Assembly (NCBI RefSeq): GCF_052324685.1 | Contig: NW_027506913.1 | Span: 496,001-560,000, forward strand | From: Brachyhypopomus gauderio | Taxonomy: Eukaryota > Chordata > Actinopteri > Gymnotiformes > Hypopomidae | Length of the DNA stretch: 64,000 nt | Direction of reading: 5' to 3' | In this document: positions 417 through 61,156 of the stretch, piece after piece | How the letters are laid out: each line of letters starts with the position of its first letter | How positions within the stretch are numbered: the stretch's first letter is position 1 | The notes under the pieces: generated by a model | What the model was told of the DNA's origin: nothing | What the model saw: the letters and a program-made list of their open reading frames with translations, nothing else | Databases searched by the model: none | Program-made: the position numbers and the translations under genes

Positions 417-429
417 GCAGATCGCGAAA

Positions 430-473
<44 letters not shown>

Positions 474-483
474 TTTCGCGATC

Positions 484-486
<3 letters not shown>
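417..486. repeat. Perfect 70-bp palindrome with (AT)n core
   Basis: The left arm gcagatcgcgaaaagata is exactly complementary to tatcttttcgcgatctgc at 469-486, and everything between is alternating AT, so all 70 bases can fold into one hairpin or cruciform. A further (AT)n runs from 487 to 559. Confidence 0.9.

Positions 487-559
<73 letters not shown>
487..559. repeat. (AT)n microsatellite
   Basis: Alternating AT dinucleotides, uninterrupted over about 73 bp, directly after the palindrome. Confidence 0.95.
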
Positions 560-561
<2 letters not shown>

Positions 562-5600: not shown

Positions 5601-6796
5601 TTAAAGGTTAGGCAGCTGCGACCTCCCACCTATTTCCCACCTTCCTGCACAGGGACATGCTTTCATTGGCTGTTACCTGCACAGGATCCTCATCTACCTT
5701 CACCTGCCCTGCCATCTCCATCATGTCCAGGGCCAGGTGGCAGATGGACTTGGCGTGGTGGATGCAGGGCTCAGGAAGGCCGCTCACAGTCATGTACTTG
5801 TCCCCAACGGTCTCCACCTGCCAAGGGGCCATTAGACAGGGCGTCAAGACATATCGGCTGTATGGATTCAAGGGGCACATAAAATGATGGAAGAATGTAG
5901 CCAGCAGGAGTAACTGCTAGGTTTCCCCTAGGCCAACTTGCCCCGGTACATGTTCACAGTGTATTACCGACAGTCAACCTCAGTGTGTGCCATCTCCTAC
6001 ACAATACACTCTCATCATATCCCCCACCCCCCGCCAATGTAAGTTTAAACATACACAGACATACACACACATACACACACATCTTTGCTGAGGGCCCCAT
6101 CCCTCGAGAGACTGTAAAACCTCAGGACCACCAAGACACAGATGGTATAAAGTAAATATTGCTTTTTTTGGTGAGCCAGTATTGAAATTCTAGGCTCCCG
6201 TTTAAATCGGTTAGCTCGTGCTCCGTAAAGTGCATTCCTGTCTGGAAGCCTGGCGCATAAATCAGGGAGGCCATCTTGTCGTGCCCTCGTTTTTTTTTTT
6301 TTTTTGGAAAGCCCAACTTCGACGCAGCTGCAAATAGACGTCATAAGCAGAATGAAATAAATTACCTGGGCCCAAAGCACGGCTGGTACTGACGTGTGTG
6401 GCATTTTGGCCTGAGAAAGTCAGGCAATGTCACTATGAACCCCAGTTTTCCCATTCAAGTCATTTGCAAGAAATCATCTATTAAAGCTACTTTCAGTGTG
6501 TTTGTTTTGCTTGCGGGCTTGGTTTTGTTAAGGAAGCTGTTAATATCGTTTATGGACTACAGTGCCCTTGCTATGGCCTCCGTTCGGTGCGTTGTGTTGG
6601 TACTCGAGTGTCCATGCTTCGACTTTCATTGCACTCCATTTTCTTCCTTCTGTGCATGTAAAAAGTACAGAAGTTGTCCCAGTCCACATTTCAGCCCATT
6701 TACCTAACCCATGTCTTCACTGCCACTGAATGAATACAATTTTGTGTGTGTATGTGTATGTATTATGTATGTATCTGTGTGTGTGTTTACATACAA

Positions 6797-6895
<99 letters not shown>

Positions 6896-9800
6896 TGTGT
6901 GTGTGTAAGTGAAACTGGTGTTTGGCATCCATGTGTCGTACCTTATACACGTAAGGGTTCTTCCGGGAGTCGGTAAGGATGTCAAATTTGGTGTAGATGT
7001 CGTTGAGGAGGTTGACTATCTTTATGGCCCCCTCTGCCGACGCGTGCTTGCTGCAGAAGGCATTGAAGCCCACGATGCCGCTGAAGAGGATGGTAACGTT
7101 GTCATAGCGCTTAGCAGGCACAGGACGCTTGTGTCTCAGCTCGTTGGCTACGGACGGCGGCAGCACGGAATACAGCAATCTGCCATGCAGAAATGACGCG
7201 TTTCAGATGAAGGGCAGAAGGTTGAACAGAAGGTTCAGTGAGCTTTCGGCATCAGCGCTGTCTATGCAACAGGGCAGTCCGACTCTGTTCCTGGAGATCA
7301 GTGTGGAGTTTAGTTTCAGCCTTCCTGCCTCTGATGTTCAGGAGCATCTGAAGGCCAAGGCTCTATCGCTCTGGACAGATTGAGGTTCTGCAGCACACCT
7401 AATGCAAGTCTTTAAGAGCTTAGTCGTTAGCTTTTGACCTGTTGATGTGTGCTAGAACAAGGCAAGCTAGAGTCTCTACAGGGCATTGGGGCCCCAGGAC
7501 TGGCGATGTAAAGCAAATTAACTTGACAGAACAGTAGATCTCCAGGACAAAAGCTGTGAACCTCTGTTATACAGCATACAATGTACACACACACACACAC
7601 CCTCCAAGACTTCAGTTACAGTGACTGTGTTCCTGGTTCCTGACATGGATAATATAATTTAAAAGCACAATGTGAGTTCTATTTTTATCTGTTCCTGACT
7701 TAGACCTAAAGTGATTTAATTCAGGTGAAGTGAGTGGTTTAGCTTTATACAAAGTGAACAAAGGAACTTAATTATCCACGAGGACCAAGGCAAAATGATC
7801 CTGTTAGCCATCGTTGTTTTAGTTCCTGTCCCCAAGGCATTTCTTCACTACTGCTTTGTACATAGGCTATATTAGTCTGATATTACATAAAAAGACATAC
7901 ACTTGAAAACACACCAGGGGCCTCCTGTACAATTCTGTTGTGTAATATCTAGGAAATTCAATCTGCCAAGCTTCAAATCAGCCTGTTGAGATTCAGCATG
8001 GCTTTTGAGACCAATAAGTAAATAACAATATATAACATTTTCTTGTTCATATTTTCATATCACCCTGAAGCAGGTCTTCGGAGTACAAGAATGGGGAACA
8101 AGAGGGGTTGCTATGGGAACATGCCTTAGGATAGCTTATTACTCTCTGCCAAAACTTCAAAATGCATTAAATAATGAATTCGTATTACCGGCCACACTGC
8201 AGACAGGGCGCATTTTCAATGATCTGCTTTCCCAAAGCGCACATGCCTTCTGAATACAAATAGCAGTCTCTACGTGAGGAGCAGACTCATGGTCAGCTTT
8301 CTGTAATTTCTTCTGCATGCTGATTTGATGAATATACCAGGGGCAGGCACTGACATTCTCTGCATGTAGTAGGAAAATGAGGTGAATTCTGCCTGGCATC
8401 TTTATAGATTAACGAGCGCATCTTGGGTTTTTTTATTTTTTATTATTATTATATATGTTTTTACAACCGTATTAGCATGTGAAACAAAGAATCAGTGCAG
8501 GCCTTTCAGCTTGGACGCGACATGTGCGTGGACCACCATCGCCCCAACCCCCCCCAAACCTAAGTCGCTGCCACTGGAAGTGGGGTTTGAGTCCTGGTGT
8601 TTGAGTCCCGGATTTTGCGTCATTGCAGAGAGGCACGTGGAGCCCAGGAAACCTGCTGCCATAGATAAGCGAGGCTGTTTTAGCAGAGCGGGCGTACCAC
8701 AGCCTTGCTGTTATCACCAGGCAGTAAACCTCCAGATTCCTCGGAAACAAGGAGGTGTGTGTCATCCCCACAAAACCAAACTGCAGAGCCGGCGCATTTA
8801 AAAATCTCCTCCAAGAGGCCCTCTGTAGAACAAAGGAACTGCTTGAAAGATTATCGTGTTTATTTTTCTCTCTGTCTCTTCCACCGTGGCGATGCAAAGT
8901 AATCAGACATAATTACAACATCTATTTGCCATTCACAACACAGCAGAAGCCACCCAGTGTGTTTAATATATTTGAGTCGTTGACCAAGGTAATTGCAACA
9001 CCTTCCTTTGGGGAATTGAAAAACAAATTAGCAGGCGCATGTAATGTCTTAGGTGCCCGCTCTTGGGCCTTGTTGAGTTTCAGTTCACTTCACTGTTACA
9101 TTAGGATGATGGAGTCACAAAAATGTGTGTCCTGACAGATTTACTAGCATTATCAAATGAAAATCACAAATAAAATTAAATAAACACAAATATGCCATCA
9201 TATTATGACTAGTGACCTTTGACACTGAAACTTTGAGTGACCAGCAATTCCAAATGTAAATTATTCTATAAACTTAAGAGTTTTGACCGGACATCAACTC
9301 ATTAATAAGACAATTAATCAGTCTATATCCCAAATCCATTAATTCATGGCCAAGTAATGGCAAAAGCACTGGACAGCATCTTCCTGCCTTGCAGCTTTGA
9401 GTGCATTTGAGCTGGCAGTGCTCAAATCCCACATGGCTGTCTCCACTACAGTTAGCTATGAGTTGTTCACAGAGTGGGGACTCGGTCGACCCAAAGCCCC
9501 AGACAACTGCCAGCACTCACGGGACCAAGCGCGCCGTCATGCGCAGTGAGCACGTGGATCTGGGTTGGCTGACATGCAAACAGCCGTTTGTACCGAGGCT
9601 CCCCTGTTGCCTGTAGCACAGGCTTCGGTTTCAAGACAGTGGAAAAAGTAGGTGGCCATTTTGGAAAACAAAGTGAGATCTAGATGCTGTTTGGTATCTT
9701 TCAGACTGTCAGAAACGAGACCATTTGGCATCTTATAACCAGATTATCCATATCTGCTTTCTTGGAATATTCCTTGAAGTTACCCTACAATCATAAATTT

Positions 9801-12800: not shown

Positions 12801-13021
12801 TAACTCCGTCACTCGGCTTCTGAGCCTTGAGCTGGCACATGGCTGGGTGTACTAACCTTGCTCCGGAGCACAAACACCGTGTTGATATGGGAGAGGATGC
12901 CATGGAAACTGAAATCAATGTGAGGCCGCACAAGGGAAAATACTGAGGCCAGATTACACACGCCAGGCTGGAGCTGGGACATCACACACACACATACACA
13001 CAAACAACGATCTGAGTCCTC

Positions 13022-13102
<81 letters not shown>

Positions 13103-13315
13103 CTCAAAAAATAAAGGGAACACTGAAATAACATCCTAGATCTCAATAAAAATCTTTGAAATCAGTTGAAAATCTCTCATTTCTACCTGTTGTCTGTTCC
13201 ATTTGCACAAGAGCAGATGAAATTGATTCACAATCAGTGTTGCTTCCTATCTGAACACGAAGTGTGGATGACTTGAAGTCATTGTGTTGTTTGTTCCCTT
13301 TATTTTTTTTGAGCA

Positions 13316-13390
<75 letters not shown>

Positions 13391-16300
13391 TCAGCCATAC
13401 ACTGCTTATATATTAATTCCCAATAAGCATTTACACAAGATTGTACTAGGGCAGATAACTAAGGCATTTAGTAATGTTTATAAGCTGAAACATGCCCCAA
13501 ACAGGCCACTTTATATGCAAAAGTTTTCCCTGCCTCACCTGCGGCAGGACCCTGAAGATGGCGTTACCACACTGGGTGAGCACAAGGTCCCTGTCAAACA
13601 TCAGGTGGAAGGGGAATGCCTTGCAGAAGGTGTAGGGGCTAATGCGCGTCTCCTGGGTGCTGTTCTCCTCGAAGCCGTCCAGGTCCTCATAAAATGCCTC
13701 CTCCTCTGAGTCCTTCTCCTCAATCAGGAACTTTATGTGGTCACACTCCTCGCTTTTCTGTTGGACAACCTGACGTTGTGAAGAGTTAAGGGATTAGGGG
13801 CTGTAAGATTGTGTTTGCCAATGGTGGTGTTTAAAAGAAAAGAAAAAAAAGGCAATGCCGGCAGTGTGGAATGGGCAAGGGTGTGATAACTGATATTGCC
13901 CATCGTTCAGAAGGATACCCGACAGAGCATGAATAGTTTCTAACAATATCAATTTCTTCATCGATCGGCGGTTCTTGCTGTAAGTGCCGACTAAATGCTA
14001 ACCACAGCATGGGCTCAGCAATGAAAACTCCTGCCCTATATATGTCTACAGTACACACTGCAAACGCCATTGGTGATTGGTTTTCCTGAACAGATGTGTA
14101 CTGTAAAACACCCAGGAATACAAAGACACAAGAACCAGTGTACATCCAGAAATCAAAGTCCCACTATGCATCTTGGCATCAGATTTTTTGTTTCTTTTAG
14201 TAATGATTTATAGGAAATGATGGTGATTATTCACTCAAGCTGCTTATATGGTTTAAATGTATGCTAATAATGTCCATTTCACATAAGCCACCTACAGCCT
14301 TGCTCCTCTAGTGCTGTTCTGCACATTGAAGCCTTATCTGAACACACCCAACACGGTTGGTCAGAGTGTTCAGGTGTGTCTGTAAGCCAGAGCTGAATAC
14401 TCTTGAACTATACTCTGCAGAACAGAGCAGAACTGTGTAACGCATGGTGTTTCTGCTACTTGGCCATCTGAGTAAATCTGATTACTTGTCAATTGTAGGA
14501 CCTAGCACCAGTGAGTCAGCGTGTTTATTTGTTTTTGCGCTGAGATGGTACTAGCTATGCCAGTCTTCCTTGTAAACAAGATTTCAAGATGAGAAAACTC
14601 ATGAAAATGCATGAGCTATCCTCACACATTCTGAATTCACACACAATCAGAATTTAACAGATTACATTTATTGTACTCGCCTACCTACTTTGAGTTAACA
14701 AAAAGCAGACATTTCTGAAAATTAGCCATTTGTGTTGTTTGGCGTCAACAGTAAATCCCTATAATATAAAACATGCTGTATGTCGGGCCTGTACGGAGAT
14801 CTTTTAGTCAGCCCTACTCTGCAGCTGCTCGACTTGAAACTGAAGCCATTTTTGCTGACGTCAAGTCACAGTGTCTTTTGCCCTGCTGTTGCCGAGGAAA
14901 CACCCGCTACCATGGGTTTTTTTTTTTTTTTTTTTTTACCGGTAAAATCAGGTGTTGCGTTTGTTCAGAGGATCTGGCAAATTCAGCTCCTCTAATCTCA
15001 TACTAAATCCGTCGTAGTGCATCCATGAGGAAGAGGGAGTGAGAGAAAGAGAAGAAGACAAGCAGAGAGAGAAGAGTGTGTTGGTCCTGGAGGTGATTAC
15101 TCTTTTGGGGGCGGGGTTAGAAGCCTTCCTCCCATTAGACTGTTGTCGTCACTACATGTTCTACATGTTCAGCGGTGCACGTTTTCTCCCTCCTGCTTTT
15201 GATCTGCGTTAAGACCAAGTTCGGTGGGTTTCTATTTTTGTCGACGACCCCGTTTCTGCTAGCGCGTGCTGAGCATCAGAGCTCGGCTGTAACGTCCTGC
15301 GGCACAAGAGTGGTGGGAGCGGGCTGAAAAAAAAACGAATACGGCGGGATGTTGGGTTTGTGGATGGAAGTGAGCAGTGGTGGTGGTGGAGGATGGTAGG
15401 TGACGCAGGATGGGGCCGAACCTTCATCTCGATCTCTGTCCCATGGATCTGCTGTGCGACGGTCTTGATGATCCCGATGACAATGTCCTGGAGGCCCTCT
15501 CTCTCGGAGTAGTAGTGCAGGATGAGATTGTTGCCCTTCTCCGCGTCTGTGCAGCGGAAGGAAGGCGCACGCATGCCCGGGTAAATGGTGCCCAGGTGGT
15601 CGTGCAGGGCGTCCAGGTTCTGAAAGAGCAGTGACCTTTTCACCTTCGACTCCCTCTCCCTTCAGTAGTGTCGGTGTACGGTGTAGCGCCATGCTATGTA
15701 TGTGGCTGAACTGTGAACATGTTCCACATGTTCATTTAACTTTGCTCTACATTTTTGAACAACACAAGTGCAAAATTCAACAAGTTCACATTTCAGTGCA
15801 TATATCATTGTAAACTGAACAATTTTTTTCTAGTATATTCAGCATATACTGTAATATATTCCATAGTGCTATAGTCCCTTTCTTAGTGTAAGATGTAGTG
15901 ATGCCTGTTACCCAAAAATCTAACTTGCTCCCATAAAATGATTAATACTTTACAACCACCTCATCCCCTAAAAAACAAAAAAAAAAAACAAATGTTAAAC
16001 ACCACAAATCATACACAACAGAGGAGGACAGAGGTGATTAGGGAGGGGAAGAATGGCCTTACTTGAAGGAACTCTCGCACGTTGGAGCCGAGCACTCTGA
16101 GGATTGTGTCGTAACCAGACTCCTGACAATACTCAAAGAACATCTTTCCAAACATCTGCAGGATGTCGCCTGCTTCGATCTCTGTTCCAATCAGACAGCT
16201 TCATGTTATTATGTGCATTAAAAAATTGATTGTTTTTCTTGCTTATAACATTGCTAATGTGTTACATAGTCCCGAAAATTGAAAGATTTAATAGGTAATG

Positions 16301-23521: not shown

Positions 23522-25770
23522 TTATTTCGCGCCTTCTTTCACAGAGTCTCTGTGAGGGTCGATGGTCCTTTGATTGGACACCTCAAGGAAGTAACAAATG
23601 CCAGGGATGTCGGAAGGGAAGTTGGGCGGCAGTTCTTCTCTCGACCGTGGGGTGAAAGCAAACTCGGGGCGATCTTTTAGTAGCCTGGAACAAGAGAGGA
23701 CGCGTCAGATGATGCTTAACGAACGGAAATTTAGTGCCCTGCGTGTGCTGTGTGTTTATGTAAGTGCTACAAGGCCCACTGCATCTGTCCTCACGTCCAT
23801 CTACTGAAGTCTCAGATAAACAGATATGAACCACATGTAGAAAGGACAGAGGGATGAAAGACAAAAAAATGGAACATTTAGCCAATGAAAAAGAGGGAAA
23901 ACAATGAAAAGTTGGTGAAAATAGAAGCTGTAAACACAGCACGTTAACTTTGTCCTGGCCACTGTACCTGTAGGTGGTGGGACTGATGTTGATCTTTCTT
24001 GGTAGACTACAGGACTCAAACTTGTTGGCTAAGGTGACATTGTTGCCGAAAAGGCAGTATCGAGGCATCTTTACGCCAACCACACCCGCCAGGATGGAGC
24101 CAGAATGAACACCAATGCGCATCTGAGGAGCGAAGACAGGGTCATTGATGAGTAGAGCCATGTCCGCAGCACTGACCTTGAAATGACAATGTCATGTGCT
24201 TAAAGCTCCAAGGTTTGTTAGCATCAACTGTCAAACAGCCCAGGTATGAATGATGGTGATAACCGTGTAATAAGTACAATCAGCAAGATGCTTAACGCAA
24301 GTGACTTCCGTATATCATCAAGAGAGTCAGTCACATAGCCTCATTAATCAAACTGAGTTTAAATTGTATGTCCAGAATAATTTAATATATCTACTTTGTA
24401 GATAGATTTCATATCTGAAAAGCTTTTTGGACATTTACTTATCTAACATTGTTTAATAAATGAATCATGAGAATGTCATGTGGTAGGATCAAACTCATAA
24501 GTCATAATCCGTTCTTCCTACGACAGACTGTGAGAACAGATAGCAGCTTTCTGCAGGCTGGTCTCAGAAACTTCTAGTGCCAAAACCAAGATGCCGTAGC
24601 TCACATTCTCATGCAAAATAAATAAATATTTAAAAACTATTCTTTTGCACTGCTTTGAAAAAGCTGCACACTGTGTATTTATAAGTTGCCAACTGCAAGG
24701 ACAACATGATGCATTTTACAGAAAAGCTTGTGTGGCAGGACTTAGGATTTTTTATTATTTTGTGTTTTACACGCAGATTGAAATAGAATAATGTGAGTTA
24801 ATGAGAGGTGTAAAAAACAGGCATTAAAATAATGTCTAGTATCTGATTATCTGAACTAAATAACAATGACAGTATAGAATATTAAATAAAGGTTGCATTT
24901 AAACGATTAGATTTTGTAGATATTTACAGATGTTACAAACTACAATGGGATTTGCAGAGAAAAATGGAATTTACAGAGCTACTTGACATAAACCTTTGCT
25001 GTTTGTTGTTGTAAAGTTTACACGCAGTCCTATGATGAGACACTAACCCTAATGACCTCCCCCATTGGGGTTGTAACTTCATCGGACAGTTCCATCATCT
25101 TTAGGGCCATGAGAGCGATTTGGGCAGCATGGTTTGGGCTTTCCTTGTGCAAGCCTCCGGCAACACAGTATGCATCTCCGATAGTCTCCACCTAGAATGA
25201 GATGTGTACAATAATCAAGGAAATTCATTGTTCATTAAATGTTTATTATAACAGTTTATCATTTAATTATCATAACCACTAACAGGCATTAATATAAACG
25301 ATTAATTCCCAATGTGGTGTCACCAAATTATATCATTAGCTTGACAAAGATCTCGGACACAGCAAAATTAAAAATGTTGCACATTGAAGTTATCGGTCCT
25401 TCCATAAGATTGAATTGCTAATAATAATTAACGAGCTGAACAATATCCCCCGTCCCCCTCCAAGGGATAAATTATCCCATTTCTTAATCTCCAGGGTTCA
25501 AGTCACAGTTCTCTGTCCACGGCTGGCTCAGCGTACTGACACGAGAAGAGCCAGATGCAGAGTGAAGAGGGGGATCTATTTTTGGGGCCCGAGCCGTCGC
25601 CAGGAATGTAAGCAAAGCGGCGTCCCAAGCTAAACTCTTCCTCCGCCGTCCTTTACAAAGAGATCCATCTCGCAAGTGTAGACGAGATGTTTTAGTTTCG
25701 CACGGGGGGGAAAAAAATACTGATTACATTAGCCGACCTCATGGGGCACAGAACAGAGAACGTGGGGGAA

Positions 25771-25808
<38 letters not shown>

Positions 25809-28800
25809 GCGGTTCTTGCCTAAAGCTCTCAAACTGAGGCAAACAAAATTGGCTCATCAGTTTCAGACTAGATGTGCAGGGCCTTTGTCGTTTGTAACAC
25901 TCTGATAGGCCCTGAATGGGAGGCGTTATGGCATTATTGCAGCGTACCAGCACTACAGAGACACTTCAGCTATGACTGAATAGTGGCTTAAATTCAATTA
26001 ATTAACTGCTTTGAATGAAATTCTATCAAACAAAACTCATTGCTTTTTAAACATGGAAAATGTTTTTGCCTCCTGAAAAATGCTGCTAGTTCTTTATAAC
26101 CTAAAAGAACTACATAGAAGGCAACATTTTAACCATTCAGTTAACTTGGAAAAAGCCCACAAAGTGTTACTCATCCTATTAACTTACCTCACGTCTGAAA
26201 CCACAATAGATCAAATCTATGTATGGCCCATGAAAGAACATATAAAAAGGTTTATGTGGAATAAAACGGGCTCGTTCCACCAAAGGCAACGGGTTGCCAT
26301 GACGACCTCCTCCAGACCGCTACAAACTCACCTTGTAGACGTCCAGCTCGCCACAGTGGCGGTCGAAGCGCGTGTACAGCTCGCTGAGCATGCTCACCAC
26401 CTGCATGGGCGTGCAGCGTGAGCAGATGGCCGTGAAGCCTACGATGTCCGAGAACAGCACAGTCACCCCGTCGAACTTCTTGGCCTGCACGGGCAGGCCC
26501 TGCCACAGGCGCTGGGCCACGTTGCCCGGGAAGATGGTGTAGAGCAGGTCGACCGTGCGGCGTTTCTCCTCCTCCAGTGCCCGGTGGGCCCGCTCCAGGG
26601 CTGCCTTGGCCTTCCCCAGCCGCCTCTTCAGGCCGTCCTGGGCGCGGGCCTGCTCGCCTACCAGCACCACGTCACGCAGCGCATTGTGTATGGGGATATC
26701 AGACAGGTAGAGGCCGCGGCCCGTCAGCTCCTCCAGTCGGTCCACACACGGCGAGCCGAGGAAGAGGATGGCGTTCATCTCGGACATGAAGACCATCTGG
26801 CCCTTCAGGTCCATGGGCTGCAGGAAGAAACGTGGACGTTTTTGCATGCACAAATGTGGACGCCACATGGAAATCCAGACCTCTTGATTGGCCGTTTGCT
26901 ACAAACGGCTCTACAACAGCTGACTGGCAGTGACTCTCATAGATCACGTCACAATCTGGACAACACTTGTTTTGACTTTGCCAGGGACTCAGTATTACTG
27001 CATGTGGAAGAACTTTTTAATGCCACTTTTCTTTTTAATCAAATATTAGTTTGATTTAAAGCAAACTTTGAATCACTGATACACATAACGCCACATTGTA
27101 AGCATTTTAATGGGCTTTTATTTCGTGGCTGGGCTCCACTTGTGCTAGCTCAAAGCACCAAGACCACTATGGATCCACTCCTTACGGATTAGCAATTTTA
27201 TACGGGGTCCACTGTGTAAACTCAGGTGACATTTAGCTAGTGTGCAGAAGACTAATGCACACTCCTGTTGAGTGCGTACTGGTTCAGCCTTAAAAGTCAG
27301 CAGTGCACTTTAGGGAGATTTTATCTTTCTTTTCTTTTTCCTCTCTTTCTATAAACCAAGAGGAATAACGAATTACCAGATGGCAAGGCTTGAACAATAT
27401 TACTGCGTGTTATCATGGACCATGCTAACGGGGGATGGGAGGTAGATGCACTTTTCACAGGCCTCCTGTCCCCAAAGTTAATACTTGCTTAAATACCCAC
27501 TTATGAGACCGCTTCCCGATTTAGTGAAAGTACGCAAGTACTTGTTAGGTTCACTAGGAAGGGGACGGGTCGTTTCACCCTTTCAGACAGCTTCCACCAT
27601 GATTGTCTCGCACATATTCACTTCTGGAATCTTTTATTGCAAAATCTAGTCAGTGCACAATTGTATGAAATAAATATAATTTTGTAGACATGTCAGATTA
27701 AATGTCTCATGGCTAGTTTACAAGGGTGTGAAGCATGATGTTGTCAGTTGTGTTAAACATGTTTTATTAAATGTTAACCCTGACATTAGCTTATTATAAA
27801 CAAGATACAGAAAGAATTTCAAGATCAAACTGTAGTGGTTTAAAATGATCTGTATGGTCAGCGTTAAACTATTTAGAAAATCTTTTGCCCTGGAATTTTT
27901 AAACAGAACTTTGGGATCCAAACATCTAAAACGTGAGATGTGTGCTTGGATTTATGCATGACGTGTGCAATTAGTGTGGCCTTTTGCACTACGCTTTTGC
28001 CCATTTGAGAGACAGGACACACTTAGACTTGTCTCAGTAGGGACATGGATGCTTAAATAGGTAGACACAACCAAGAGATGTTGGGATGGGCCGAAGACGC
28101 ACCAAAGGAGATCTCATAATTTAAAAGCTCATGGAACAGAAATCGAGAACTGGGCAAAGTCGAATCCAACCGTCATAAATACTGTAAAAAAAGAATATAG
28201 GCCATATTTTTTAGATCTATGTTCATTTAGATATGCTGTAATAAGCATCCCACGTGATTCTTTCACAGTAGCTATAAATAGGGTAAATCTCATTATCTGA
28301 AGCTGGGAGTAGTGAATGCTTCTACATAGCTTGACATTTGGCTCTTCATATGCATCTCATCTGTGTAGGACTGGTTTTACCTTTCCAGAACAGGAGGAGG
28401 TTACCCGTTTTTGTCGATGTGGGGCCTATGCTGCTTTATTATGTATACAATGAATTCTATTCATAACCACAAAAAAATAGGAAATTGTAGACTTGTTTCC
28501 AGCTCATCGGAGAAGGATGCTGGACAAAAAAAAAAACATCCCTAATTACTCTGCACTTATTAATCCTGACTCCTGGTGATTCGCTCAGAAGCTGCTTGTA
28601 CGTCTAAATCTGAACCATTGAGTTTTTTTCTGGTTCTTTGATCTGGGGGCAATTAAAAATATATATAACTCTGGGCATTGATATAATTTACATTTTCCTG
28701 TCATTTAACATACACCAGCTTTGCAGTCTATGGAGACTTTAAGAGTTATTTCTTCTCATAGTTGTGCGTATTAGCTAAGCAATGCAAGGGCAGGAAAAAA

Positions 28801-30704
28801 AAATCTGGGTAAGCTGTTTTTTAGACACAGCTGCCGATGCACTTTTAACACAGAGCTACTGAACGCACAGCTTGAAGCGTACCTCACATCTCATGATTAC
28901 CTTGCCTGAGCGAGTCGTCATGCCTGATCCTTGCTGCTTCACCCGGAGCACGAACTGGGTGTTGAGCATGGTCAGGATGCCCTGGAAGTCTGCGTGTATT
29001 TCGGGCGAGACGACAGCGAAGTGCTCCTCGAACGCGGGCCTCCTCTGCCCGTCCCTGCTACGACCCAGGCGCCTGCGCAGCCCATCACCCATCTGCAGGA
29101 GACCCATGTCCTGGTCCAGCAGGACGTGGAATGGGAAGGTGGTGTAGAGCAGGGACAGGGGCACGGCCCCAGAAGAGGGCGTCCTCATGGGGCTCGGCGT
29201 CAGGTTCCGGGCATCATGCACCGCCACCGAGTAGAGGAGGTGCGGCCGGCGGCTGGCCTGCAGCACATCTGCGTCTTTTCCGCCGGCGTCCATCCTGACC
29301 TCCACCCGCGTGTGGTAGAGGACGGCGGCCGCTGCCTGGATGATCCCAGGGAAGAAGAGCTCGGCGGTGGGGTGGGGGTTGAAGTAGTACACAGTGAGTA
29401 GTCCTGGGTCTTTGTCCAGGCACAGGACGGAGGCCTGGTCCACGTAGCGCCGAGCCTCGGGTGTGGGAGGCGTGCTCTGCTTCAAGAGGACGTTGAAGCT
29501 GTTGAGGAAGTCGTGCAGGGCTCCCCCTACCACACCCAGAATGTGACTGTACTCCTTGTAACAGGTCCGGAACACTTCCAAACCCAAGGAGATCTTCAGC
29601 TTGTCCATGTGAATGCCTTGTAAAGTCGTATAAGGTACACATTCAGAATTAAACTGACATGAAATTTAATATCCATACACAAAGTCTGAGGTAAATGTGC
29701 GTGATATACCTGTTTGCAATGAGTAGTTCTTCATGACATCTACTAAACGCTCGGGTGTTTCCAGTGGAAGACAAACATCTTCGTTGTGTTCCACGGGGCT
29801 GTGGATGCGATAGGGAACACGCACAGTGGATCAAAGGCGCGATATAACAAGGACTCATATGACAATATGAACTTTAAAAGGGCGAAAGCTTAGTGTGAGG
29901 AAAACGAACAGGCAATCACACAGGAGTGTGAATGAAATCCTAACAACTTAAGCAGTATTTGTAAAGATCACCGAAGCTTTAAACCGCACGAGAGTAGGTT
30001 TAAAAACAAGGTATCTAAACATTAATGTAATGCAAAAAATGTTAATTATTCAGACTGGTGTGTATATCAGAGACAGTGTTTAACGTAAAATAGTGTACAA
30101 TAGCATAAATGTTAGGTGTAGGTAAACACCCCAGCAACATCCCTGTAAGGGCAAAATGAGTAATGCGCGTTGTAATGTATGTAATCATATCTCAGACATC
30201 TTACCAGGGAAGGTCTGACGGCTGTTCCATGATTCTGATCATCGCACTTCGAAGATTTTCAAACTAAAAATGCAAACGTTGATTACTTTGGCATAATAAC
30301 AGCGTTTATGTCAGGCGACTGCAGTGCATCACTTTGTGGTTACTAAGTGAGGCTAAACAATACAGAGTTTGGAATAGGCTACAGAGTTGCTCTGACAAAT
30401 CTTAAATAAACGCGCTAATAATAGATAAATCGGACTCCTGAATAATGTGAGATGACATTACCTCTGGGCAAACCAATTTCCGGATGCTTTCCCCTAATGA
30501 ATGGAGATTAACTTTACCCCTGCTTGTTTTTCTTTTGGGCACAACGCATGTGATATTTCCGTGGACCTCTTTGGAAATTGGTAAGGCGTCCTTTGCACGG
30601 TGGTCCTCGGATTCTTCGAAATTCCCCGGTTCCTCATTTTTGACGACCATAGAAAAGGGACACTCTCCCGAAATTTTTAAATCCTTTAGTTTCGCACAAA
30701 ACAT
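23522..30704 (-). CDS. gucy1a1: Soluble guanylate cyclase subunit alpha-1 (8 coding exons, 684 aa)
   Basis: This is the partner of gucy1b1 in the NO-sensitive cyclase. Coding exons in order: 30704-30462, 30263-30205, 29798-29710, 29616-28901, 26817-26332, 25191-25048, 24122-23968, 23684-23522. All introns are GT-AG and the 2055 nt join in frame. Residues 1-81 are a divergent, Lys/Glu-rich tail. An H-NOX-like domain without the haem histidine lies mainly in the 716-nt exon, followed by PAS and a coiled coil rich in Lys/Arg/Glu. The cyclase domain carries the two metal-binding aspartates, about Asp493 ([12 protein letters not shown]) and Asp537 (ETIGDAYC). The alpha sequence [11 protein letters not shown] lacks the Asn and Arg that beta uses for catalysis, so heterodimerisation is needed. 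The end is FLEVSNQRT plus a short tail; human is 690 aa. An AATAAA overlaps the stop codon (23526-23521). Confidence 0.96.
25771..25806. repeat. Homopolymer (G)36 tract
   Basis: 36 consecutive G on the plus strand, in gucy1a1 intron 5, hence poly(C) in the pre-mRNA. The length is uncertain because such tracts are often misread. Confidence 0.9.
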
Positions 30705-51037: not shown

Positions 51038-52165
51038 TCAGAGATGCGTGTTTGCCTGTGTCAGGACGCTGACTGTGCTCTGGTGGGCAAGGGCCTTTTC
51101 CTTCAACGCTCCCCCGCTGTACGCCCTCTTCAGGCCGCTCTCGGCCGGTGCGCACCGGAAGACGGAGGCGAAGGCAGCCCTGTAGTTCCTGTTCATCCAG
51201 CCGTAGAGGATGGGGTTGGCGAAAGTGGAGCACATGGCCACCACGTGGAATGCCGTGTAGAGCAGCTTGAAGTCCCGCATCTCCAGGACGCTACTGTTCA
51301 CGTCCACGGCCAGCTGGAAGGCGTGCAGGGGGAGCCAACAGACGGCGAAGACGGCCACTACGGCCGCCAGCATCTTGGTGGTCTTGCGTCGGCGCCGGTG
51401 GCGATCGGCGGCGCGACCACCCGCCCCGGGGCTGGCGTGTCCACGCAACTTGCCCCAGATACGGGCGTACGCGAAGGACAACACGGAGAGCGGCAGGCCG
51501 TACTGCAGCAGGAAGACGGCCACGCTGTAGACCGTGCCGTCGGCTCCGCTGCCGGGCCACTTCTCGGCGCACGCCTGGATGGTGTGACCGGGCGCCACGT
51601 CGAAGGTCATGTACTCACGGAAGATGGCCAGCGGGCTGGCCAGGGCGGCGCTGGCGGCCCACGTGGCCGCCACCACGGCGGCGCACGCGTCCCTGGACAG
51701 CTTGGTCTCCGTGTGGTGGACGATGCTGCGGTGGCGGTCCAGCGCGATCACGTTAAGCGTGATGGTGGACACGTGCACCGCCAGGCCCTGCGCGAACGGC
51801 AGGAGGTAGCACATGGCCTGGCCGAAGCGCCACTCTCCGCACAGCGTGTACATGAGCGTGAAGGGCAAACACAGAGCGTTCACCAGAAGGTCAGCCACAG
51901 CCAGGTTCGCGATGAAAAAGTTGGTGACCGTGCGCAGGTTGCGGAACTTGTACACCACGTAGATGACCAGCGAGTTCCCTGTCACACCCAACAGAATGAT
52001 GACGCTGTATGCCAAGATCAGTATCACCTGAACCCCGATGAGATTAGTGCTGTCCTCCAAATCATCCAGCAAATCGCCCTTATCTGCTTGCGAACAGCAG
52101 TTTGCAGAGGCTGTGGTGTCCTCTTGGGTTGTGTTCTCTTGACTTTTTATCTCCATACTTGGCAT
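51038..52165 (-). CDS. npy2r: Neuropeptide Y receptor type 2 (375 aa, intronless coding region)
   Basis: This is a class A G-protein-coupled receptor for NPY/PYY, normally Gi-coupled at the plasma membrane. Seven hydrophobic segments are visible, TM1 starting about residue 44 and TM7 ending about 323. There is an N-glycosylation site at Asn11, a disulphide pair Cys119-Cys199, DRH (143-145) in place of DRY as is typical of Y2, CWLP (276-279), and NPILY (317-321). Cys338 (FRC) is the likely palmitoylation site. Y2 signatures include TVTNFFIANLAVADLLVN, ASPLAIFREY and WLPLHAFQLAVD. Size matches human Y2 (381 aa). The ATG at 52165 has a weak context; Met4 (52156) has A at -3 and G at +4 and may be the real start (372 aa). 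The gene is much GC-richer than its surroundings. Its place next to map9 supports Y2 over the other NPY receptors. Confidence 0.95.
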   Translation of the reverse strand: MPSMEIKSQENTTQEDTTASANCCSQADKGDLLDDLEDSTNLIGVQVILILAYSVIILLGVTGNSLVIYVVYKFRNLRTVTNFFIANLAVADLLVNALCLPFTLMYTLCGEWRFGQAMCYLLPFAQGLAVHVSTITLNVIALDRHRSIVHHTETKLSRDACAAVVAATWAASAALASPLAIFREYMTFDVAPGHTIQACAEKWPGSGADGTVYSVAVFLLQYGLPLSVLSFAYARIWGKLRGHASPGAGGRAADRHRRRRKTTKMLAAVVAVFAVCWLPLHAFQLAVDVNSSVLEMRDFKLLYTAFHVVAMCSTFANPILYGWMNRNYRAAFASVFRCAPAESGLKRAYSGGALKEKALAHQSTVSVLTQANTHL

Positions 52166-52169
52166 CCAT
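52080..52169 (-). promoter_or_regulatory. Overlapping upstream ORF at the npy2r start
   Basis: An ATG four bases before the npy2r ATG opens a different frame of 29 codons ending in TAA inside the receptor N-terminus. It would limit translation unless ribosomes scan past it. It is functional only if the mRNA 5' end lies upstream of 52169, which cannot be seen here. Confidence 0.4.
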
Positions 52170-54574
52170 GCAATAAGCTATACAAGGGCACATCAAGGAG
52201 ATGGGGAGAGTCAAATTGTTACATAAATCTGGAAACGAAATAATTGGGAACTAAAACCACAAATTGCATCCAGATACACGAGTTGGAATGATGGGTGTTC
52301 GGCGCTGTTATTGGCAGGAGCGAGCACAGTAACGTTTTTAACCTTCTTAATAATTTTTATACAAAGAGCACTGTGTTCACCTTACTTCACGAGTAGTTGC
52401 ATTTTATAGAATTATCTGTGTGGAAAAATAGGATGTGTTGGGTTGGAGCATTAAATCACAGATACAAAACAGCGATCTAAAGAAAATTAAAGCCACGGTT
52501 TCTTCTCGTCTTCAAACCGTGTGAATCCACGAACCTTAATGATGGTTTTTTCTGATACATTGGTCTTTAAAAGATTTTGGAAAAGGACAATTTGCAGAGG
52601 ACGTTTTTTTTTCTTCATTTTCCACTGAACGCTGTGGCCATGTAACCGCGCCAAAGACATTATATTGCACTCAATTCCAAACATCCAAGTCAATTTAAGT
52701 CTAAATACATAATGTCCCACACTAGCGCTTGTGTAAATTAGAGACAATTGACCATGTACTGCAGAAATGCCACGAAAATGTTGACAAGATGTGCATCAGT
52801 ATTGGTTATAGTTAAACGTTTTGTTTTCAGGTTAAACGCAATTTAACTGCAGGCTCTAAAACTTACCTAACGTCGGTAGCGTTAAAGACAATTACTAACT
52901 TAGAGCACAGTTGGTATACTTTGTACAAGTATTATCATCTCACCTGGTTTATAGAGTAGATGCTTCAGTAACTTTACATGACAAAACGATTCACTCCTGA
53001 GTCATTCCACAGAGCAAAACGATTTAGAGGCGATGCATCCATACCGATATCTCTTTGATAGAAAGCACAAGAAAACAGCTTAGTTGTGATCCTTTGCCTA
53101 TAGGACGTTCGGCATCCGAAGAGAATCGCAAGTGACTACACACAGGTTCACGTCTAAGGAAATTGATATTAACTGCAGGTGGTGTTTGAACAGAGGCAAG
53201 AAGCGCGCGCGCTTTCATCTGCGATGGCTTTATATGCGGCTGTGCGCGCGACCTGAAGGGGCGCACATTTCATTAGACTTTTATTTTCTTACGGTTCGCA
53301 ATTAACTCGCATGATAACAGTTTCGGTTGCTTACGTGTCCATTAAGAATCGACCGACCATTTTCTTTAAAATGTTGAATTGTTGAGGCCACTAAAATAAT
53401 ACTTTAAGCAAAAGGCATACGATTGTTTCTGTTATTTGATCGAATTGGGCGTATGGCTGATTATTTGATAGGTATACCAGACGTTTCCGTCAGGGCAATA
53501 CCTTGTCCTGTACAGTTCTCACGAAAGCTACAGCTGTTCACAGTGAAGACCGAAATGTCAGGAAATGTAATTACTCTAAAGCCAAGGGACTCGTTATACA
53601 AGAACAGGCCATTGTATTGGCTCTTATTATGTGGAAATGATACTGGAGACGCATGTCGGGTCTAAAATTAAGTTAAGGTTCAAAAGGCTTTGTACAACTA
53701 CGCAAAAATGCATTCATTTTGTTACAGTGTTGCACTACCGCTGAAAACGTCGGTGTTAATTGAAGGAATGGGGTGATTGTGGCAGAACTCAGCAAATTAC
53801 CGTGATATCGTGTTTAAACGACCAACGACTGTCCTTTTACTCGTGAAAATGTAACAACAGGTGCTAGCTAAGCAAATAACGAGTATCAATCGTTAATAGC
53901 TTAACCCCTGATGTCAAATTTACACTTGTCCTTTAATATAATATGTTAGGATACCCCAGAGTTTGTTCAAATATCATGCCACTTTTGACAGTTCTCTGAC
54001 CATTTAATCACCATTCAATCACTATTTAATCACAGTAATTTATCTAATGCCAGTCCCGTGTGAACCAGACCCAGCGTTATTTATGTAATATGTATTTACT
54101 GGCCTCTTTCATAAAGTTTAGGGTTGTTATTAGTATTCATTTGCATTGTTAATTTCTAAATACTATTCATCCAATCACTTAACACATGTCTACAGCGTAA
54201 TTTATTTGTTAAATGTTTGAATGTTGTTCTGAATTAGTAGAAGGGGGAGCTATACATGAAAAAGTAGATCATAACATTCATTTGCATTGGGGCTCAATCA
54301 ATCAATCAATCTAATCAATCAACAAACTGACAGAATAGTATTGGCTAACCAACCAGACAGTAATGATGAACTAACAGCAGTGATAGCACCATCAGGAAAC
54401 ATACCATGTGGTCGAATAACTCAAGAAATCAAGGGCTGAGAGAAGATGTGGAATGTGAAGGCAACAGTTTTTGCCATGGTAATTGGAGCACTAGGGGCTT
54501 TGGCCCCCAAACTGAGAGAATGTCTCCAGCAGACACCAGAAACAACATCCAAGATCTCCATCTAGAAGAGTGCG

Positions 54575-57480: not shown

Positions 57481-59034
57481 CAACCTGACGTCCCAATGCT
57501 GGGATGCTGAGACTGAGAAGAACATTTTGACTGCATCATGACACATGTATTTCACTACAAGTGCACTTTCAGATCAGCAGTTGCATATCAACAAACACAG
57601 GACTAACCTCAATACAGCTGAGGTATCTTTGGAGTGATTTTAAATATTCAGAGTAATTCAGACTTGTTTGAACGGTTCTGGTTATAGAACTGACAAACAC
57701 AAACTCTGCATAAGAAGTTTGAGCAGGTAAGACACCAAAAGCAGTTGTCATTCAAACTCAAGGTTCTTCAACTGCATGACCCATTGTTCTTCACATACTG
57801 TTCATTTATCTTGGATACAAAGTAACTAAAAGCTGCACACTATAGCAGTTTTTAGTTATACTGTAGATTTGAATTCATTAAAAAATCTACATGTGAAGTG
57901 GAAGAAATTTTTATTACACTTACAAGCTTTGCAGGGAATCGTCTGGACCATGCATTTTGTATTTTGTTTTGTTACTCTGAGAAGACAGATATTGTGTTTT
58001 TTTTCCTTCAGTCAAAACACATCCATCAGCATGAGTAAAACACAGGGATGCATTCACTAGGAGACTGAAATTAAGTAAGTGATAGTGATTGAAGGCTTCT
58101 GTTTCTCTTATAGTCCTCTTGAAACTGGTAGTACATGTGTCGGTGTCATGGAGACCTTGGGGATGGAATGGCAAATTGACTTCTACAGACCATGAGAGTG
58201 TGTGATGGAGTGAAGATGTAGTGAATGTAGATTATACATTCTTTCTCTCTCTATCTCTACCATCATCTTTCTGCCTCCTTCTGGGTCAGAAATATGTTTT
58301 TTGTGAGCATAACTGCCACAGATGCAGCAAGGTCAGTCCAGACATGCTGTAAACGCAAGAAATTTGCAAGGCTTTCAAAGGACAAAATGGCTACATTGTG
58401 AGAGGCTGAGAAACCAGCCTCAAGCCTCCTAAATGAACTAAATCCAAGTGTACGTTATTTACCACCCAGGCTTACTGCAAGGTGTTATATTTACATAAGA
58501 AAACAATTTATTTCTGAAGTAGCTGGTCTTACAATTCAGTGCAGGTAACACCTTTCGTTCAAGTGCATGAAACCTTGAGTATTCATCTGACTTCATTGCT
58601 GTCTGCACATGGGAAAGCAGAAAACAGCCCATAAACTGAATGTTCGAACAAGGTAGATGTAGACAGTTAGGTACCAAAGAAGAATATGTAGCTGACTGGA
58701 TTTATGTAGCCAATTATGTATTGATGCAGACACCGTTGTGTAGCTATCTAGCATTCTTCCATTATGTAAGCCATAAATAATCACATTGTATTTTTTGTGA
58801 TTTAAAGCAAATTTGGAGAAGTAAAGACAGTGTTCCCAGAGTTAACTACACACTTATAACTGTCTGTATAAGATATATCAGAAATTGTATAAATTGACCT
58901 CAGGCTGACTGGTTCTTAACCTATCTTTGATGACGTTTCTTCAAAATGAAAAGGGGGGAAAAAGTCAGGTTTTGCGCACAATTGGAGTGATCATATCCCC
59001 AAGGCAGTCTTCCCCGTCATTCTTATCTTTGATC

Positions 59035-59372
59035 TGTCACGTTGAGGACCCCGGCCCCTCCCTTTTGGGCGTGTGTAAACGTTGTCCACGTGCTCTGTCT
59101 GCGTTTTCGGAACTCCGTGGTGATAGCTTTGTTGTGTGAATAATGTGTCTCACCTGTGAATCGTCTCGTAATCACATGGGGCTAATGTGGTCTGTCTATT
59201 TAATGTGCGCTCGCGCAGTGTCCTGTGCTCGTCGTTGTCTAAAGTCTACACGTCTCAGTGTGTGTATACGTGTTCCGTGTGCGCTATTGCGCAATTACTA
59301 TTTAAAATAAAAGTGACGTCAGTCTAAAGGAGGATTCAGTGTCTCATCCTTCGCCACGACCCCATCGTCACA
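59035..59372 (+). repeat. 5' LTR
   Basis: This is a 338-bp terminal repeat starting TG and ending CA. It contains tctatttaatg as a possible TATA-like element around 59197-59207 and AATAAA near 59307, consistent with U3-R-U5 order. The base after the LTR begins taccgacg rather than a TGG, so there is no ordinary tRNA primer site directly adjacent. Confidence 0.88.
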
Positions 59373-59396
59373 TACCGACGAGCCGTGTGAGACACC

Positions 59397-60671
59397 ATGC
59401 CGGGCTATGCCACCCGACCGAAGAGGGGCAATCGAGCCAGCAAGCGGCGCCATCGCGCCTCTTCTCCTGGCCAGCGCTGCCAAGCCACCGCCAACCCCGA
59501 GCTCATGGAGCAGGACCCGCTATGCGCCTATATGCTGCGCATGGCTCGGGAATCCTCCGTCCCCGAGATAGCGGACAACTTCCTCGAGCAGGCACGGCGG
59601 ATATGGCGAGAGCGACACCCCTCTCCTTCCCGCGAACCCTCGCCTCTGAGGATGGGGGCGTTCGTGCTTTGCTCGACGGAGAGCACTCCAGAGAGCGAGT
59701 TTGGGGAGGAGGATTCGCCAAGCGAGGAGGAAGAGGACTATCCTCCGTCTCTAGGCGAAGCCTCCACCGTCGACTACGGTGGGGAGGGGGAGGAAGCCTA
59801 CCCTCCGTCGCTAGACGATGTCTCCACCGTCGACTACGGTGAAGAGGAGGAGGAGGAGTCAGAGGAAGAGGACTACCTCCCTCCGCCCGTGGTTCCCTCT
59901 CCCCCCGTCGAGGAGGGCGAGGAAGAGGGCGAGGAGCAAGAGTGTGACGAGGAGGAGTACCCCTCCCCGTCGGACTGCTCCGCATGCCCCGAGGAAGACG
60001 GTGGGGAGGAGGAGGAGAATGGGGAGTACCCTCCGTCCGAGGGCTCCTACACGGAGGAGGAGGAGAGCCCTTCCCCCTCGGAACTGTCCGCCGGGATGGC
60101 GAAGAGGAGGAGGAGTCCAGAGGCGGGTTCATCCCCCGAGCTCTCCCCAGCCAGCGACATGGACTGTTCCCGGGGTGGCAGCTCGGGACAGCCCATGAGC
60201 TGGAGCCGTGGCAGTGACGAGGTGATGGAAGCGGAGGAGGCCACTCCCACTGCCAGGTCCGGAGGGAGATCCACGGGCGAGGAGGGTTTCCCGTACGGCC
60301 CACCGAGGGTTGGGACCAACCGCGCTGCACCTGCCGCGTCGGCCAACCGCGCTGCACCTGCCACGTCGGCCAACCGCGCTGCGCCCGGTGGAGGGTTTGC
60401 AGCAAGGGCAGGAGGAACACCGCCCACCGCAGCGCCTGCAGCACCAGTGGCTCCCGATCTCACTCCCCTCATCGCTATCCTTCTGGCGCGCAGCCTGGCG
60501 CCTGTTTCATGTGTGTGTGTGCCTGTGTTCGTCAGTCTTCCCGTCTGTATTCCTAACCCATTTTTCCCATTCGTTCCTCTATGTGTCAATGTGCCTGTGT
60601 GCGTGTTTGTGAATGTCCCGTGTAACGTGTCTAACGTCTTTTCCCCTATGTTCCCAGGGAGGGTATTCTAG
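59397..60671 (+). CDS. Acidic Ser/Pro-rich ORF of the LTR element (424 aa, function unknown)
   Basis: The ATG lies 24 bp after the 5' LTR. Residues 1-35 are basic (Arg/Lys). About 36-80 may be a small helical segment (PEIADNFLEQARRIWRER). Residues about 90-235 are dominated by Glu, Ser, Pro and Tyr, with a duplicated block ending ASTVDYG/VSTVDYG. About 308-335 hold a nine-residue repeat (NRAAPAASA-type) in two full copies and a part. The last 50 residues are hydrophobic and Cys/Val/Phe-rich but come from a T/G/C-rich stretch that looks like an intron, so this end is doubtful. No gag, protease or polymerase motif is visible. It could be a diverged gag-like protein, a captured host fragment or an unrelated element ORF. 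I do not assign a function. Confidence 0.55.
   Translation: MPGYATRPKRGNRASKRRHRASSPGQRCQATANPELMEQDPLCAYMLRMARESSVPEIADNFLEQARRIWRERHPSPSREPSPLRMGAFVLCSTESTPESEFGEEDSPSEEEEDYPPSLGEASTVDYGGEGEEAYPPSLDDVSTVDYGEEEEEESEEEDYLPPPVVPSPPVEEGEEEGEEQECDEEEYPSPSDCSACPEEDGGEEEENGEYPPSEGSYTEEEESPSPSELSAGMAKRRRSPEAGSSPELSPASDMDCSRGGSSGQPMSWSRGSDEVMEAEEATPTARSGGRSTGEEGFPYGPPRVGTNRAAPAASANRAAPATSANRAAPGGGFAARAGGTPPTAAPAAPVAPDLTPLIAILLARSLAPVSCVCVPVFVSLPVCIPNPFFPFVPLCVNVPVCVFVNVPCNVSNVFSPMFPGRVF
60318..60386 (+). repeat. 27-bp in-frame tandem repeat in the LTR-element ORF
   Basis: Units start at 60318, 60345 and 60372 (third partial). Each full unit encodes nine residues of the NRAAPA(A/T)SA type. The copies differ by single bases, so the duplication is recent. 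Confidence 0.85.
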
Positions 60672-60813
60672 GCGGTCCGTGGCGGACGCTTCCCCGAGGG
60701 CAGTCACCTCCCAGACGCAGGACTGAGCGCGTCGGATCCGCCCATCGTCGTGGGTTCGGGGCACTCGGTCCTGTTGGCACCCCGGGACGGGTAGTGCCCT
60801 TGGAGGGGGCGTC

Positions 60814-61151
60814 TGTCACGTTGAGGACCCCGACCCCTCCCTTTTGGGCGTGTGTAAACGTTGTCCACGTGCTCTGTCTGCGTTTTCGGAACTCCGTGGT
60901 GATAGCTTTGTTGTGTGAATAATGTGTCTCACCTGTGAATCGTCTCGTAATCACATGGGGCTAATGTGGTCTGTCTATTTAATGTGCGCTCGCGCAGTGT
61001 CCTGTGCTCGTCGTTGTCTAAAGTCTACACGTCTCAGTGTGTGTATACGTGTTCCGTGTGCGCTATTGCGCAATTACTATTTAAAATAAAAGTGACGTCA
61101 GTCTAAAGGAGGATTCAGTGTCTCATCCTTCGCCACGACCCCATCGTCACA
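60814..61151 (+). repeat. 3' LTR
   Basis: This repeats the 5' LTR base for base except for one visible substitution. It is preceded by the purine tract at about 60801-60809 and followed by the TGATC target duplication. Confidence 0.88.
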
Positions 61152-61156
61152 TGATC

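What the first reader, a model, noticed from the sequence alone, without database searches (positions are those of the whole stretch)
59035..61151. Young, compact LTR element encoding only an acidic ORF of unknown function
Matched 338-bp LTRs with one visible difference, a perfect TGATC target duplication and a purine tract show a recent retrotransposition. The sole ORF has no gag or pol features that I can see. It is the only object here that I cannot place in a known family, so it could be an undescribed non-autonomous family or one carrying a captured sequence.
Basis: partly seen in the sequence, partly recalled or inferred. Interest (0 to 1): 0.7.

Follow-up and report, generated by a model that had tools for sequence, protein, structure and literature searches.

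The report
Self-priming LTR element, conserved non-Gag protein
A short, recently active jumping gene in this animal genome carries none of the usual copying enzymes, yet keeps RNA signals like those of a known self-priming retrotransposon group and encodes one conserved acidic protein of unknown function, so it most likely borrows its enzymes from a relative.

Summary
Window 59035-61151 is an intact LTR element: two 338-bp LTRs with one difference, TSD TGATC, a purine tract, and a 424-aa ORF. It belongs to a large family. Sixteen further two-LTR copies from the same genome all have perfect 5-bp TSDs. An exact LTR-end/primer-site motif occurs 816 times (reversed control 0), and 12 of 12 sampled sites lead into the same ORF family. 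The primer site is complementary to ten bases in the LTR about 30 nt after the TATA-like box, and a U5 hairpin loop pairs with the sequence beside it. This resembles the 'pretzel' self-priming leader of the Tf1/sushi group. The ORF shows purifying selection between three subfamilies (dN/dS 0.39-0.50). It has no significant match in Pfam or the PDB; only a small helical N-terminal domain is predicted to be well ordered. Best reading: a non-autonomous Tf1/sushi-like element that has replaced gag-pol with a maintained non-Gag protein and is mobilised in trans. Sushi-type gag frames are present in the genome, but no partner sharing this primer site was found; the decisive searches did not complete. 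Repbase/Dfam could not be checked.

The parts
59030..59034 (.). left target-site duplication TGATC
59035..59372 (+). 5' LTR, 338 bp, TG...CA
59197..59203 (+). TATA-like box TATTTAA in the 5' LTR
   Evidence: (LTR position 163)
59227..59236 (+). proposed self-primer GCTCGTCGTT, 30 nt after the start of the TATA-like box, hence the expected 5' end of the RNA (start site inferred)
59306..59311 (+). AATAAA polyadenylation signal
59329..59352 (+). U5 hairpin GGAGGAT/ATCCTTC, with GTGTCTC (59339-59345) in its loop
59374..59383 (+). primer-binding site ACCGACGAGC, one base after the LTR; 15 of the 16 other fetched full copies have AACGACGAGC (L010 has a deletion there)
59389..59395 (+). PBS-adjacent GAGACAC, complementary to the U5 loop GTGTCTC
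59397..60671 (+). ORF, 424 aa, acidic (net -45); its ATG is the first one after the proposed RNA start; ordered helical N-domain about residues 34-73, disordered acidic middle, hydrophobic Cys/Val/Pro C-terminal tail 366-424
60672..60813 (+). 142-bp 3' untranslated region (8 of 142 sites vary among 17 copies)
60802..60809 (+). polypurine tract GGAGGGGG, followed by CGTC and the 3' LTR
60814..61151 (+). 3' LTR, 338 bp, one mismatch to the 5' LTR
61152..61156 (.). right target-site duplication TGATC

Best explanation
This is a recent copy of a large, diverse family of non-autonomous LTR retrotransposons that replicate like Tf1/sushi-group elements. The RNA starts in the LTR at GCTCGTCGTT. Its own first ten bases fold back onto the primer-binding site just after the LTR, helped by a U5 hairpin loop pairing beside the PBS, and prime first-strand synthesis without a tRNA. 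Reverse transcriptase, integrase and capsid are supplied in trans, most likely by a sushi-type gag-pol element of the same genome. The first AUG of that RNA opens an ORF for an acidic, mostly disordered protein with a small helical N-terminal domain. This protein is kept by selection and so probably helps the RNA that encodes it, for example in RNA or particle recruitment or in reaching the nucleus or chromatin. Shown: anatomy, family, leader complementarity, constraint on the ORF, presence of sushi-type gag frames. Inferred: start site, self-priming itself, identity of the helper, role of the protein.
For: Two-LTR structure with TSDs in 17 of 17 copies. Exact LTR-end/PBS junction 816 times against 0 for the reversed control; 12 of 12 sampled junctions lead into the ORF family. 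Primer/PBS: 29 of 37 distinct leaders (chosen by a PBS-like pattern) have a full 10-nt complement in the LTR. In 21 leaders, 98.6% of primer/PBS cells and 97.2% of loop/PBS-adjacent cells are paired; the whole structure has 93.7%, against 33-51% when partners are slid by 1-3 columns. Tf1/sushi self-priming and the 'pretzel' are described in PMC10085805 (passages). ORF: dN/dS 0.39, 0.42 and 0.50 between three subfamilies, Fisher p 2e-8, 3e-8 and 4e-5. The C-terminal tail has dN/dS 0.10-0.13 between its two types. Of ten gap events in the ORF, every one that sets two or more copies apart is a multiple of three. Helper candidates: 150 scored DUF4939 matches of 1339 candidates, many in open frames of 1400-1573 codons.
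Against: No gag-pol element with this LTR or PBS was found. None of the 17 listed DUF4939 hits on C1 and on C2 below 14.04 Mb lies within 2 kb downstream of a listed exact junction, and leaders of sushi-type elements could not be fetched. The start site rests on TATA spacing alone. Most primer/PBS pairs never vary, so covariation cannot prove pairing; the structure was drawn from the window copy, which favours it over slid versions; the count of pairs changed on both sides was reached by 171 of 500 shuffles. The U5 stem is absent in 2 of 21 leaders (L062, L066). L061 and L069 lack a recognisable primer. The C-tail result is in effect one contrast, window-type tail against one other type shared by the other six ORFs compared. 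Residues 251-365 have dN/dS 0.94 and 1.01 in two of three pairs, and one close pair has 3.06 in the acidic stretch on 1 against 10 changes. Many in-frame gaps are gains or losses of repeat units of 27 or 60-odd nt, which keep frame without selection. Five of 17 copies have a shortened or altered ORF.
Confidence: 0.7

Rival explanations
1. The ORF is incidental and the element is a purely RNA-level parasite (TRIM or LARD-like); openness of the frame only reflects youth.
For: Copies are young (mean LTR divergence 0.0033 over 17 copies), so frames have had little time to break; residues 251-365 show no constraint in two of three pairs; repeat-unit gaps keep frame without selection.
Against: Subfamilies with N-terminal dS of 0.75-1.0 still keep the frame and an overall dN/dS of 0.39-0.50; the 35-, 301- and 1-nt gaps in the ORF each set only one copy apart; 28 of the 30 best ORF matches carry no stop.
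Confidence: 0.12
2. The ORF is an extremely diverged Gag and the element is a Gag-only derivative (TR-GAG-like) of a sushi element.
For: It is the first ORF, where gag sits; a TR-GAG with a single Gag ORF was seen to transpose in Arabidopsis (PMC8704663, passages).
Against: None of the 13 members of A1 matches a gag family; the only Pfam row is CDK5RAP3 at E 0.45 in one member. No CCHC knuckle in 25 of 25 ORFs. The predicted ordered core is about 40 residues, too small for a two-lobed capsid (capsid size recalled).
Confidence: 0.12
3. It is a simple internal deletion of a known gag-pol family.
For: Size and the kept LTR, PBS and PPT fit a deletion derivative in principle.
Against: No gag or pol remnant was recognised in the ORF. 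The ORF family is found at 12 of 12 sampled junctions and in subfamilies whose N-termini are about 60% identical, so it is an old common gene and not a deletion scar.
Confidence: 0.04
4. The ORF was captured from a host gene, such as an acidic nuclear protein.
For: Basic N-terminus, acidic middle and a KRRR stretch look like a nuclear protein (by eye).
Against: No significant match in Pfam or in PDB sequences.
Confidence: 0.1

Closest known systems
Tf1/sushi group of chromoviruses (Tf1, Tf2, Tj1, sushi-ichi)
   Same: self-primer at the expected RNA 5' end complementary to a PBS next to the LTR, and an extra duplex between PBS-adjacent and LTR sequence (here; for the group, PMC10085805 passages); a 5-bp TSD is recalled for the group
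   Different: no gag, protease, RT, RNase H, integrase or chromodomain found; one acidic ORF instead
TR-GAG elements (plants, e.g. AT5TE33540)
   Same: two LTRs and a single main ORF, transposition relying on another element (PMC8704663 passages)
   Different: the ORF here is not recognisably Gag; a self-priming leader of the Tf1/sushi kind, whereas AT5TE33540 is an ATCOPIA63 member
TRIMs including Helenus and Ajax
   Same: short, non-autonomous, PBS and PPT kept, 5-bp TSD in some (PMC10886601 abstract)
   Different: those carry a tRNA- or 5S rRNA-derived sequence in the LTR and the abstract mentions no coding capacity; here there is a selected 424-aa ORF and a TATA-like box
LARDs and BARE-2 (recalled)
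   Same: non-autonomous LTR elements mobilised in trans
   Different: non-coding or with a defective gag; here a conserved non-Gag ORF

Membership tests
LTR retrotransposon | two LTRs with TG...CA ends, TSD, PBS and PPT | tested here: met
   17 of 17 copies with TSDs and the same PPT end; PBS intact or nearly so in 16 of 17
Tf1/sushi group | self-primer at the RNA 5' end complementary to the PBS | tested here: met
   full complementarity in 29 of 37 leaders, six others with one base or a G-U pair off, two without primer; that the RNA starts there is inferred
Tf1/sushi group | additional PBS-adjacent/LTR duplexes ('pretzel') | tested here: inconclusive
   one such duplex found, 97.2% of cells paired in 21 leaders; the Tf1 structure has three duplexes in all and the third was not sought
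Tf1/sushi group | RT-IN phylogeny and chromodomain integrase | tested here: not met
   no RT or IN found in the element; it can be called Tf1/sushi-like in priming only
non-autonomous partner of a sushi gag-pol element | a gag-pol element with the same LTR ends or PBS | tested here: inconclusive
   sushi-type gag frames present; none of 17 comparable hits adjacent to the junction; decisive searches unanswered
TR-GAG | single ORF with a Gag domain | tested here: not met
   no gag family matched by 13 of 13 members in Pfam
any named Repbase/Dfam family | sequence identity to a catalogued element | not testable with these tools
   no repeat library held

The most novel reading that the evidence does not exclude
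A lineage of self-priming LTR retrotransposons that has lost gag-pol altogether and survives, with hundreds of copies, on a protein of its own that is neither Gag, Pol nor Env: a cis-acting accessory that gives its own RNA preferential access to another element's particles or to the nucleus.
Probability: 0.35. Interest if true: 0.75.

Novelty: new variant of a known kind. Interest (0 to 1): 0.55.

Why it matters
Non-autonomous LTR elements are usually non-coding or carry remnants of gag (recalled). A diverse family that keeps a non-Gag protein under selection while discarding its enzymes would be a test case for how a parasite of retrotransposons competes for helper proteins. Because nearly every leader examined carries the self-priming pairing, it also gives many natural variants for testing the Tf1-type priming structure in an animal.

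Tried and rejected
tRNA primer: the sequence after the LTR does not begin with the usual TGG (by eye, rule recalled) and instead matches the LTR itself. Structure and sequence searches gave nothing significant: Foldseek on the whole ORF model and on the N-domain model, no PDB hit at E <= 0.001; PDB sequence search by single protein and by profile, best E 4 and 0.65. Viral-contig scans with the ORF and with alignment A1 found no relative. The 10-kb loci L024, L025, L027 and L028 around single LTRs were looked at for a partner; the frame list was cut in output, and L027 holds an unrelated-looking Gypsy pol fragment. Partner test by position: 17 of 17 comparable DUF4939 hits have no listed junction within 2 kb upstream. 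Six literature searches were read as listings (titles and abstract starts); none of the listed papers names such a family. Of four papers opened I saw passages (PMC10085805, PMC3601003, PMC8704663) or the abstract and outline (PMC10886601). This says nothing beyond those searches.

Full report
Observation. Four bases (CGTC) lie between the G run and the LTR; the same ending GGAGGGGGCGTC is printed for 17 of 17 copies. The ORF's ATG is the first one after the proposed RNA start.

Family. The window's own 796.5-Mb genome was searchable. With the LTR as query, 40 of 3037 candidates were scored and matched at 94-100%. I fetched 15 paired copies and five single-LTR neighbourhoods. One of the latter (L026) proved to be a further full copy; L025 holds a truncated one. 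All 16 full copies plus the window copy have perfect 5-bp TSDs, 17 different sequences; LTR mismatches are 0-5, and 6 of 17 have none (L022 and L026 also have gap columns). Mean LTR divergence is 0.0033; at an assumed 1e-8 substitutions per site per year this is about 0.17 million years (the rate is an assumption). In 12 of 17 copies the ORF starts 24 nt into the internal region and is 417 aa or longer; L010, L017, L018, L022 and L023 are shortened or altered.

Breadth. The ORF protein gave 163 matches from 99 scored of 8419 candidates, not all listed. Of the 30 best, which became L029-L058, two carry a stop. Identity falls to about 60% in the N-terminus. In 18 of these loci given to a script (L029 is the window itself) an LTR pair was reported in all 18; 15 have clean ends and TSDs, L045 and L056 do not, and L053 paired with a neighbouring LTR. 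The exact motif GTCACA-K-AACGACGAGC (LTR end plus PBS) occurs 422 + 394 = 816 times; the reversed control gives 0. I took 12 of the 100 or so listed sites, all on C1, from the first part of the list. 12 of 12 lead into the same ORF family; in 8 of 12 the frame is open to the end of the fetched stretch (302-307 codons), and in L062, L064, L066 and L070 it is broken. No sampled site leads to gag.

Self-priming leader. The bases after the LTR are complementary to LTR bases 193-202 (193 counted in the full copies), 30 nt after the start of the TATTTAA box, the expected RNA start. One search collected 37 distinct leaders with a pattern that already requires a PBS-like sequence: 29 have the full ten-base complement in the LTR at that place, six differ by one base or a G-U pair (L021, L022, L029, L053, L056, L058), and L061 and L069 lack a recognisable primer. 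The window copy itself (L029) has one mismatch. From the 37 leaders printed (a slightly different set, without L061 and L069) I aligned 21 that cover the subfamilies. Primer/PBS forms 9-10 pairs, G-U included, in all 21; the U5 loop pairs with the PBS-adjacent GAGACA over 5-7 bases in all 21; a U5 stem of at least four pairs is found in 19 of 21. On alignment A2, 98.6% (primer/PBS), 97.2% (loop/PBS-adjacent) and 81.3% (U5 stem) of cells are paired, and two pairs of the stem have changes on both sides. The whole structure has 93.7% against 33-51% when slid. Its covariation score 0.078 was reached by 1 of 500 shuffles, the number of pairs with two-sided changes by 171 of 500. The structure was drawn from the window copy, which favours it. 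The pairing is thus highly conserved, with only modest covariation. It is the arrangement described for Tf1/sushi elements (PMC10085805, passages seen), of which I found the primer duplex and one of the flanking duplexes.

The protein. Between three subfamilies (L029, L046, L052) dN/dS is 0.39, 0.42 and 0.50, Fisher p 2e-8, 3e-8 and 4e-5. By module: N-terminal 95 residues 0.33-0.47; acidic stretch 0.42-0.50; residues 251-365 1.01, 0.94 and 0.44; the hydrophobic tail 366-424 0.10-0.13 where the window type is compared with the other type (p 6e-7 for L029-L044, 3e-8 for L029-L052). The other six ORFs compared share one tail type, so the tail result is one contrast, not several. dS is 0.75-1.0 in the N-terminal 95 residues but 0.03-0.06 in 251-365, so the ORFs are mosaics, as template switching between co-packaged RNAs would give (inferred). 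Of ten gap events in the ORF, seven are multiples of three, including every one that sets two or more copies apart; the 35-, 301- and 1-nt ones each set one copy apart. Gains and losses of in-frame repeat units account for several of the seven. Pfam finds nothing for the window protein up to E 10, and one row (CDK5RAP3, E 0.45) in one of 13 members. None of 25 ORFs has a CCHC motif. AlphaFold2 gives block-mean pLDDT 84-96 for residues 31-70 (helices 34-37, 41-52, 56-73) and about 70 for a C-terminal hairpin; 301 of 424 residues are below 50. The N-domain alone is predicted likewise. L059 and L061 carry the N-module twice.

Helper. DUF4939 (PF16297; recalled as the N-terminal Gag domain of sushi-type elements) has 150 scored matches of 1339 candidates, many in open frames above 1400 codons, several with identical scores, so sushi-type gag frames are present and look recent. 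I could not show that any of them shares this PBS. The 17 hits that lie in the part of the genome covered by the capped junction list (C1, and C2 below 14.04 Mb) have no listed junction within 2 kb upstream, and the direct look at 16 leaders did not complete (from then on).

Reading. The element works like a Tf1/sushi element in priming, and it is non-autonomous as far as its coding shows. It is not filed as a member of that group, because the defining RT-IN test cannot be met by an element without them. What is unusual is the kept non-Gag protein. A non-autonomous element gains from keeping an ORF only if the protein favours the RNA it came from, so I expect a cis-acting accessory role; which one is open.

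Noticed in passing
window 23586-29665, minus strand: Exons of a soluble guanylate cyclase (HNOBA and Guanylate_cyc Pfam matches over cut-off, HNOB below it).
   Followed up: partly
window 51041-52177, minus strand: 379-aa open frame, rhodopsin-type receptor (7tm_1, E 1.8e-58), apparently without introns.
   Followed up: partly
window 418-593, 6724-6913, 12968-13412: Related repeat tracts with 8-base spacing that also match each other in inverted orientation.
   Followed up: no
L059:463-918 and L061:468-884: The helical N-terminal module of the ORF is present twice in these copies.
   Followed up: partly
G000:C8:8251231-8251479: A DUF4939 gag match sits in a 3025-codon open frame, about twice the length of the other long ones.
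   Followed up: no
L027:7930-9899, minus strand: Gypsy-like RT/RNase H frames (by eye) near a single LTR of this family.
   Followed up: no
L024:279-825: A relative, 81-88% identical in two pieces, lacking the stretch between element positions 1410 and 1658.
   Followed up: no
L053:114-443: A second, 82% identical LTR beside the copy in L053, flanked by CATGG on both sides; the copy's 3' LTR is followed by CATGG too.
   Followed up: no
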